A DNA stretch of 29,531 nt from a virus. Made by a program: the position numbers and the translations under genes. The notes below the pieces were generated by a model that worked only from the letters and a program-made list of their open reading frames with translations, was not told where the DNA came from and ran no database searches. This document shows positions 13,319 through 13,919 of the stretch, in pieces. The first letter of the stretch is position 1, and each line of letters starts with the position of its first letter. Where the stretch lies: IMG/VR virus record IMGVR_UViG_3300022707_005551, positions 1 to 29,531 of that record; one strand, 5' to 3'.

Positions 13319-13525
13319 ATGGGTAGCTTAGTGTTAACAATACGGCTGGGTGGGGAAATCAAGATTGGAGACGATATCACCATCAAAGTGCTTAGAATAA
13401 ACCCTGGCCAAGTGAAAATCGCGTTTGATGCCCCGCCGGATGTAGTTATTTTACGCGACAATGCGATTAATCGAGTTAAGAAGGAGAAGCCAAAAGATGA
13501 TGGATTTAAAACTACTAACAGCTGA
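13319..13525 (+). CDS. csrA: CsrA/RsmA family RNA-binding regulator
   Basis: Residues 4-55 align along their length with E. coli CsrA: LVLT-IRLGGEIKIGDDITI-KVL-QVKIAFDAPPDV-ILRDNAI. The G-D turn (17-18), the A-P motif (38-39) and the essential arginine (R46, equal to E. coli R44) are kept; R9 equals R7, but R6 is replaced by I8 and H43 by L45. CsrA dimers bind GGA in mRNA leaders and block or alter translation. ATG 13319 follows GAAGGAGAAATAACC. The last 29 bp overlap the lysozyme start, and the lysozyme ribosome site AAGGAG lies inside this gene. Phage lysis control is the inferred role. Confidence 0.88.
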   Translation: MGSLVLTIRLGGEIKIGDDITIKVLRINPGQVKIAFDAPPDVVILRDNAINRVKKEKPKDDGFKTTNS

Positions 13526-13919
13526 ATTAAAGCGTGATGAAGGTTTTAGAGCCAAGGTCTATACCTGTTCAGCCGGTAAATTAACGGTAGGCTATGGGTG
13601 GAACTTGGAAGCCTCAGAGATGCCTGAACGCATTGCAGACGCATTATTATCCGTTTCAATTAGCAATGCACTAATCGAGGCCACTAACTTTAATTGGTTC
13701 TTCCCGCTCAGCGATGTGCGTCAGAGGGTTATTTTGAACATGCTGATGAATCTCGGCTATGCAAGGTTCTGTGGTTTTAAAAAGATGATCGCTGCATTAG
13801 AAATATCTGATTACGATGAAGCCGCTAATCAGATGGAAGACAGTCTTTGGTTTAAACAAGTCGGTGATCGGGCTGTGCGGTTAGTAGCAATGATGGAAAA
13901 TGATTGTAATGACAACTAA
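13497..13919 (+). CDS. Phage lysozyme (GH24 muramidase, endolysin)
   Basis: The catalytic signature of T4-type lysozymes is present: E15 in DEGFRAKVY, C24 in YTCSAGKL and T30 in LTVGYG, with the E-9-x-6 spacing of T4 E11/D20/T26; Cys in the middle is the common E-C-T variant. Further family motifs are DVRQRVILNMLMNLG and a C-terminal LWFKQVGDRAVRL. The enzyme cleaves peptidoglycan glycan strands. No signal peptide or SAR segment is visible, so a holin is needed. ATG 13497 (or 13500) lies 10 bases from AAGGAG inside csrA. At 140 residues it is a normal small GH24 enzyme. Confidence 0.92.
   Translation: MMDLKLLTAELKRDEGFRAKVYTCSAGKLTVGYGWNLEASEMPERIADALLSVSISNALIEATNFNWFFPLSDVRQRVILNMLMNLGYARFCGFKKMIAALEISDYDEAANQMEDSLWFKQVGDRAVRLVAMMENDCNDN

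What the first reader, a model, noticed from the sequence alone, without database searches (positions are those of the whole stretch)
13319..13919. CsrA homologue embedded in the lysis cassette and overlapping the lysozyme start
The gene order is holin candidate, CsrA, lysozyme. The lysozyme ribosome site (AAGGAG) and its first codons lie inside the CsrA gene, so binding of CsrA to GGA there would control lysozyme and its own decay or translation. Established: CsrA represses translation by binding GGA near ribosome sites. Inference: the phage uses it as a translational lysis timer or to reprogram host carbon storage and motility. The basic residue equal to R6 and H43 is replaced, so specificity may differ.
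Basis: partly seen in the sequence, partly recalled or inferred. Interest (0 to 1): 0.75.

Follow-up and report, generated by a model that had tools for sequence, protein, structure and literature searches.

The report
CsrA homologue inside a phage lysis cassette
A bacterial virus carries its own copy of the RNA-binding regulator CsrA between a putative membrane-pore gene and the enzyme gene that bursts the cell, an arrangement that recurs in a few unrelated viruses and suggests, without proving it, that the regulator helps to time cell bursting.

Summary
Window 13319-13525 encodes a CsrA-family protein (PF02599, 59 bits against a cut-off of 27). It starts 2 nt after a small membrane-protein gene, and the ribosome site and start of a T4-type lysozyme (13497-13919) lie inside its 3' end. 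R6 to I is unique among 136 phage homologues compared; E46N and I47A also change the RNA-binding face, while L4 and R44 are kept.

The GGA argument is weak: 36 of 50 genes here carry GGA upstream of their start, because it is part of the Shine-Dalgarno sequence, and no hairpin presents it. Most phage csrA genes sit with recombination or repressor genes, not lysis genes.

The lysis setting is nevertheless not unique. The phage with the closest lysozyme found (55% identity), otherwise unrelated, has holin, csrA and lysozyme in the same order. Coliphages PTXU04, Pondi and Bas95 end a GH108 endolysin-holin cassette with csrA, and published knockdown of PTXU04 csrA shrinks plaques. Host CsrA is known to repress a colicin lysis gene.

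Best reading: a translational regulator recruited to a lysis module, probably to restrain lysis-gene translation (confidence 0.4). Host reprogramming remains nearly as likely. New variant of a known kind.

The parts
13077..13316 (+). holin candidate, 79 aa, small membrane protein directly upstream of csrA
   Evidence: one hydropathy segment over threshold at residues 56-74; no Pfam/PHROG match; assignment rests on position
13305..13310 (+). csrA Shine-Dalgarno AAGGAG, 8 nt before the ATG, inside the end of the holin candidate
   Evidence: sequence
13319..13525 (+). csrA homologue, 68 aa
   Evidence: PF02599 59 bits; PHROG_9500; PDB CsrA/RsmA
13481..13486 (+). lysozyme Shine-Dalgarno AAGGAG inside csrA
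   Evidence: sequence
13483..13485 (+). GGA (ANGGA context) in the lysozyme SD, possible CsrA site 1
   Evidence: not distinguishable from SD background
13502..13504 (+). GGA (ANGGA context) in codons 2-3 of the lysozyme, possible CsrA site 2, 16 nt from site 1
   Evidence: only 2 of 50 leaders have two ANGGA sites
13497..13525 (+). 29-nt overlap of csrA and lysozyme
13497..13919 (+). T4-type endolysin (lysozyme), 140 aa, with E15-8aa-C24-5aa-T30 catalytic pattern
   Evidence: PF00959; aligned relatives; pattern read from sequence
12145..12534 (+). DUF1064 / Holliday-junction-resolvase-like gene, same-strand neighbour, also found between csrA and lysozyme in L173
14359..14727 (+). HNH endonuclease, same-strand neighbour, weakly shared with L127

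Best explanation
The gene encodes a divergent, phage-borne CsrA-family RNA-binding protein that has been recruited into a lysis module and is translationally coupled to the endolysin. Shown: family membership, gene order, overlap, and recurrence of csrA in lysis cassettes with two unrelated endolysin families. Inferred: the protein binds the mRNA of its own lysis module, overlapping the lysozyme ribosome site, and holds back endolysin (and perhaps its own) translation until the transcript outnumbers the protein, as host CsrA does for the colicin lysis gene. Because the lysis genes here lie in one same-strand block with recT and other early-type genes, and the structural genes are on the other strand, a post-transcriptional brake on lysis would make sense.
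For: CsrA identity; R44, L4, L2, R7, A36 and P37 kept. Recurrence: L127 holin (PF11351) - csrA - lysozyme, sharing with the window only csrA, lysozyme and a weak HNH match; its lysozyme was the best of the 548 relatives scored in the IMG/VR scan and is sister to the window's with support 0.93. PTXU04, Bas95 and Pondi: GH108 endolysin - 2-TM holin - csrA, with that csrA under purifying selection (dN 0.027 against dS 0.36-0.51). Knockdown of PTXU04 csrA reduces plaque size (PMC11879866). Host CsrA represses the colicin E2 cel lysis gene at its SD and sets release time (PMC5916893). The lysozyme leader is one of 2 in 50 with two ANGGA sites; their 16-nt gap lies inside the 10-63 nt range that one dimer can bridge (PMC7652899).
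Against: GGA near the start is near-universal here (36 of 50 genes) and comes with the SD; no hairpin presents it. Two residues whose alanine mutants are among the weakest binders in C. jejuni CsrA, R6 and E46 (PMC6692469), are replaced. Most phage csrA genes are not near lysis genes; among 16 csrA contigs with a recognised endolysin only 2 have it within 2.5 kb, about what chance gives. The csrA genes of the window and L127 are not each other's closest relatives. The PTXU04 knockdown target overlaps the holin's end, so its phenotype may partly reflect the holin.
Confidence: 0.4

Rival explanations
1. The protein acts in trans on the host: it mimics or competes with host CsrA and reprograms carbon flow, motility, surface polysaccharide or CRISPR-Cas expression. 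Its place beside the lysozyme reflects modular gene shuffling.
For: Proposed for phage CsrA by Campa et al. (PMC8450108); a plasmid CsrA homologue, RsmQ, takes global control of translation (PMC9928087). Most phage csrA genes lie with early recombination or repressor genes, as do the window CsrA's nearest relatives in the tree.
Against: Recurrent placement in lysis cassettes with two endolysin families; the altered RNA-binding face makes simple mimicry of host CsrA less likely.
Confidence: 0.33
2. The protein has lost or changed canonical GGA binding (R6I, H43L, E46N, I47A) and is a decaying passenger, or binds another RNA or a host partner. It stays because its codons hold the lysozyme ribosome site.
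For: R6 is R or K in all 136 phage homologues compared, and E46 is E or D in all; alanine at either is among the strongest losses in C. jejuni CsrA (PMC6692469); long branch in the tree.
Against: The frame is intact, 59 bits to Pfam with the core strands kept; L4 and R44, the most critical residues in several species, are kept.
Confidence: 0.2
3. No functional link: csrA is a movable cargo gene that happens to lie next to the lysozyme, and overlap and GGA are usual phage compactness.
For: 20 of 47 same-strand pairs overlap and 36 of 50 genes have an upstream GGA; 0 of 50 records related by capsid gene carry csrA; only 2 of about 93 related lysozyme loci have csrA within 3 kb.
Against: Independent recurrence in Xuquatrovirus with purifying selection and a knockdown phenotype.
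Confidence: 0.07

Closest known systems
CsrA of Escherichia phages PTXU04, Pondi and HelliStehle_Bas95 (Xuquatrovirus)
   Same: CsrA homologue inside a lysis cassette, overlapping its neighbour gene
   Different: Order is endolysin-holin-csrA, the endolysin is GH108, the protein keeps R6 and H43, and it is only a remote homologue of the window CsrA
L127, IMGVR_UViG_3300034777_000465
   Same: holin - csrA - lysozyme on one strand; lysozyme 55% and CsrA 46% identical
   Different: Two genes between holin and csrA, one between csrA and lysozyme; the rest of the phage shows no match except a weak one to the HNH gene
Colicin E2 cea-cei-cel operon under host CsrA
   Same: CsrA at the SD of a lysis gene sets release time (PMC5916893)
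   Different: The regulator is the host's and not encoded in the operon; a GGA is exposed in a hairpin loop there, with none predicted here
CsrA/RsmA genes of F116, Bcep22-like (JC1) and Vibrio phages
   Same: Phage-borne CsrA family members
   Different: Placed near the repressor/early region or between portal and capsid genes (JC1, PMC9144972), away from lysis genes; H43 and R6 kept in those aligned

Membership tests
CsrA/RsmA family (PF02599) | Profile match above the curated cut-off over the whole domain | tested here: met
   59 bits against 27, profile 2-52 of 53
CsrA/RsmA family (PF02599) | Critical RNA-binding residues L4 and R44 | tested here: met
   L6 and R46 of the window protein
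CsrA/RsmA family (PF02599) | R6 and the VHRE motif of the RNA-binding face | tested here: not met
   R6 is I; VHRE is ILRD and E46 is N; these are functional residues and do not by themselves define family membership
CsrA/RsmA family (PF02599) | Five-strand intertwined dimer | tested here: inconclusive
   AlphaFold2 monomer: three central strands and a helix, pTM 0.51; beta1 and beta5, which pack across the dimer, are not formed
CsrA/RsmA family (PF02599) | Binding of GGA-containing RNA | not testable with these tools
   needs purified protein
Phage holin-endolysin lysis cassette | Endolysin with catalytic pattern | tested here: met
   PF00959 match; E15, C24, T30 spacing read from sequence
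Phage holin-endolysin lysis cassette | Recognisable holin | tested here: inconclusive
   no family match; one clear membrane segment
CsrA-repressed lysis gene (as colicin cel) | GGA exposed in a hairpin at the SD | tested here: not met
   leader folds no better than shuffles, no GGA loop

The most novel reading that the evidence does not exclude
Lysis-cassette csrA genes form a recurrent, independently assembled class of phage-encoded translational lysis-timing regulators, and the small-plaque phenotype of PTXU04 csrA knockdown is a lysis-timing defect rather than a host-takeover defect.
Probability: 0.28. Interest if true: 0.75.

Novelty: new variant of a known kind. Interest (0 to 1): 0.5.

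Why it matters
Phage CsrA homologues are known, but what they do is open: proposals centre on host or CRISPR control, and the one published knockdown shows small plaques without a mechanism. Finding csrA inside lysis cassettes of unrelated phages, including the very phage that was tested, points to a specific and testable function, translational control of lysis timing, in an E. coli laboratory system.

Tried and rejected
(1) Rejected: GGA at the lysozyme SD as evidence of CsrA control; it is in 36 of 50 leaders. (2) Rejected: a special RNA structure; shuffles fold as well or better. (3) Rejected for now: the (GGAGCN)26 tract at 8472-8629 (26 GGA motifs) as a CsrA-sponge RNA. It lies within overlapping open frames, such tracts occur in at least 119 viral stretches, and only 1 of those 119 loci holds a csrA-like match, while none of the other 346 loci in hand, including all csrA loci, has the tract; Rfam gave nothing. 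(4) csrA as a lineage trait of the capsid relatives: 0 of 50 records, several short, so weak. (5) General csrA-lysozyme clustering: 2 of 13 PF00959-bearing csrA contigs within 2.5 kb on the same strand against about 0.85 expected (estimated from contig lengths), not significant. (6) Relatives by RecT found nothing; megablast against phages found nothing. (7) The genome-contig scan with the lysozyme alignment gave 3 loci, none with csrA.

Full report
What is there. The window is a 29,531-base virus record without end repeats. A same-strand block of plus genes runs from about 8107 to 16326; structural genes lie on the minus strand from 16476 to the end. The major head protein (28603-29529) resembles HTVC106P- and Venkman-like phages at up to 50% identity; megablast of 10 kb against 50,697 phage records found nothing. 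Within the plus block are a 79-aa membrane protein (13077-13316), a CsrA homologue (13319-13525) and a T4-type lysozyme (13497-13919). CsrA identity is secure. The lysozyme start is fixed at 13497 by a 55%-identical relative that aligns from its own first residue. The lysozyme SD (13481-13486) lies in csrA codons and the genes overlap by 29 nt. The csrA SD (13305-13310) lies inside the end of the membrane-protein gene. Overlaps are usual here: 20 of 47 same-strand neighbour pairs. 'Holin' for the upstream protein rests on position and one hydrophobic segment only.

RNA-binding face. Against 136 distinct phage CsrA sequences, collected through the IGDD region and so not selected at position 6, the window protein keeps L2, L4, T5, R7, A36, P37, V40 and R44 (E. 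coli numbering), but has I at R6 (135 R, 1 K in the others), N at E46 (131 E, 5 D), L at H43 (105 H, 2 L) and A at I47 (3 A). In C. jejuni CsrA, R6A and E46A are among the strongest losses of binding; in E. coli the order begins R44, V42, L2, I47 (PMC6692469). An AlphaFold2 monomer gave the central strands and helix with low confidence at the dimer-packed ends.

Is there a CsrA site on the lysozyme mRNA? GGA occurs in -30..-1 of 36 of 50 genes and ANGGA in 16 of 50, because AAGGAG is the Shine-Dalgarno sequence. Neither leader folds better than shuffles, and no GGA loop appears. The one mild oddity is that the lysozyme leader has two ANGGA sites (13481-13485 and 13500-13504) with 16 nt between the GGAs, seen in only 2 of 50 genes and within the range one CsrA dimer can bridge (PMC7652899). 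This is a lead, not evidence.

Where csrA sits in other phages. In F116, PA8, Vibrio 219E41.1 and 431E45.1, and Providencia PSTCR8lys, csrA is near repressor or early genes. Neighbours of csrA in 58 representative viral contigs are mainly RecE, RecT, RdgC, SSB and repressors, and the window CsrA's nearest relatives in a weakly supported tree are also in such places. In Bcep22-like JC1 it lies between portal and capsid genes (PMC9144972). Lysis placement is a minority. Yet it recurs. In L127 (IMGVR_UViG_3300034777_000465) the order is GTA-type 3-TM holin, two small genes, csrA, one small membrane gene, lysozyme; this phage shares with the window only csrA, lysozyme and a weak HNH match, and its lysozyme was the best hit of the IMG/VR scan. 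In L173 csrA is 1.4 kb upstream of a 44%-identical lysozyme with DUF1064 between. Of about 93 related lysozyme loci only these two have csrA within 3 kb, and of 50 further lysozyme records one has csrA elsewhere. In coliphages PTXU04, Bas95 and Pondi, csrA ends a GH108 endolysin - 2-TM holin cassette, overlapping the holin stop by 8 nt. Between PTXU04 and its relatives that csrA has dN 0.027 against dS 0.36-0.51, similar to the holin.

Function. PTXU04_00028, the csrA of that cassette, gave reduced plaque size on translational knockdown; [quoted passage not shown] The main text of that paper does not contain the word holin. A caveat: the knockdown target overlaps the holin's 3' end. Host CsrA represses the cel lysis gene of the colicin E2 operon at its SD and sets the release time (PMC5916893). 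Together these make lysis-gene control the most economical reading (0.4), with host or CRISPR control (PMC8450108) close behind (0.33), and an altered or decaying protein third (0.2).

Novelty. Phage-borne CsrA is known (PMC8450108; PMC7366521). The papers I read do not connect it with lysis cassettes; the library is open-access only, so this is not proof of novelty. I rate it a new variant of a known kind, interest 0.5.

Noticed in passing
window 8472-8629: 26 perfect-register hexamers AGCNGG (GGAGCN), with variation only at one position; 26 GGA motifs in 159 nt, at the start of the plus-strand gene block. The frame read from the TAATG start at 8436 gives Ser-Arg/Trp/Gly repeats; the frame joining the next gene gives Gln/Leu/Arg-Glu repeats.
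   Followed up: partly
window 13899-13925 and 14158-14184: A perfect 27-nt direct repeat that carries the end of one gene and the ribosome site of the next (genes 13932 and 14189), directly downstream of the lysozyme.
   Followed up: no
L127 4148-4170 and 4359-4381: A similar 23-nt repeat (87%) with GGAGCAGGGTAATGA at the starts of the two genes after csrA, the second being the lysozyme.
   Followed up: no
window 7990-8110: Likely divergent promoter region: TTGACA-17-TATCCT at 8050-8078 on the plus strand. The ORF listed from 7993 probably starts at 8107.
   Followed up: partly
L467 29991-31855 (PTXU04): RdgC - GH108 endolysin - DUF7940 holin - csrA in a row; csrA and rdgC are also neighbours in other phages (PHROG 724 among csrA neighbours).
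   Followed up: partly
L388 9562-9765: The only locus with both a GGAGCN tract and a csrA-like match (E 2.4e-4).
   Followed up: no
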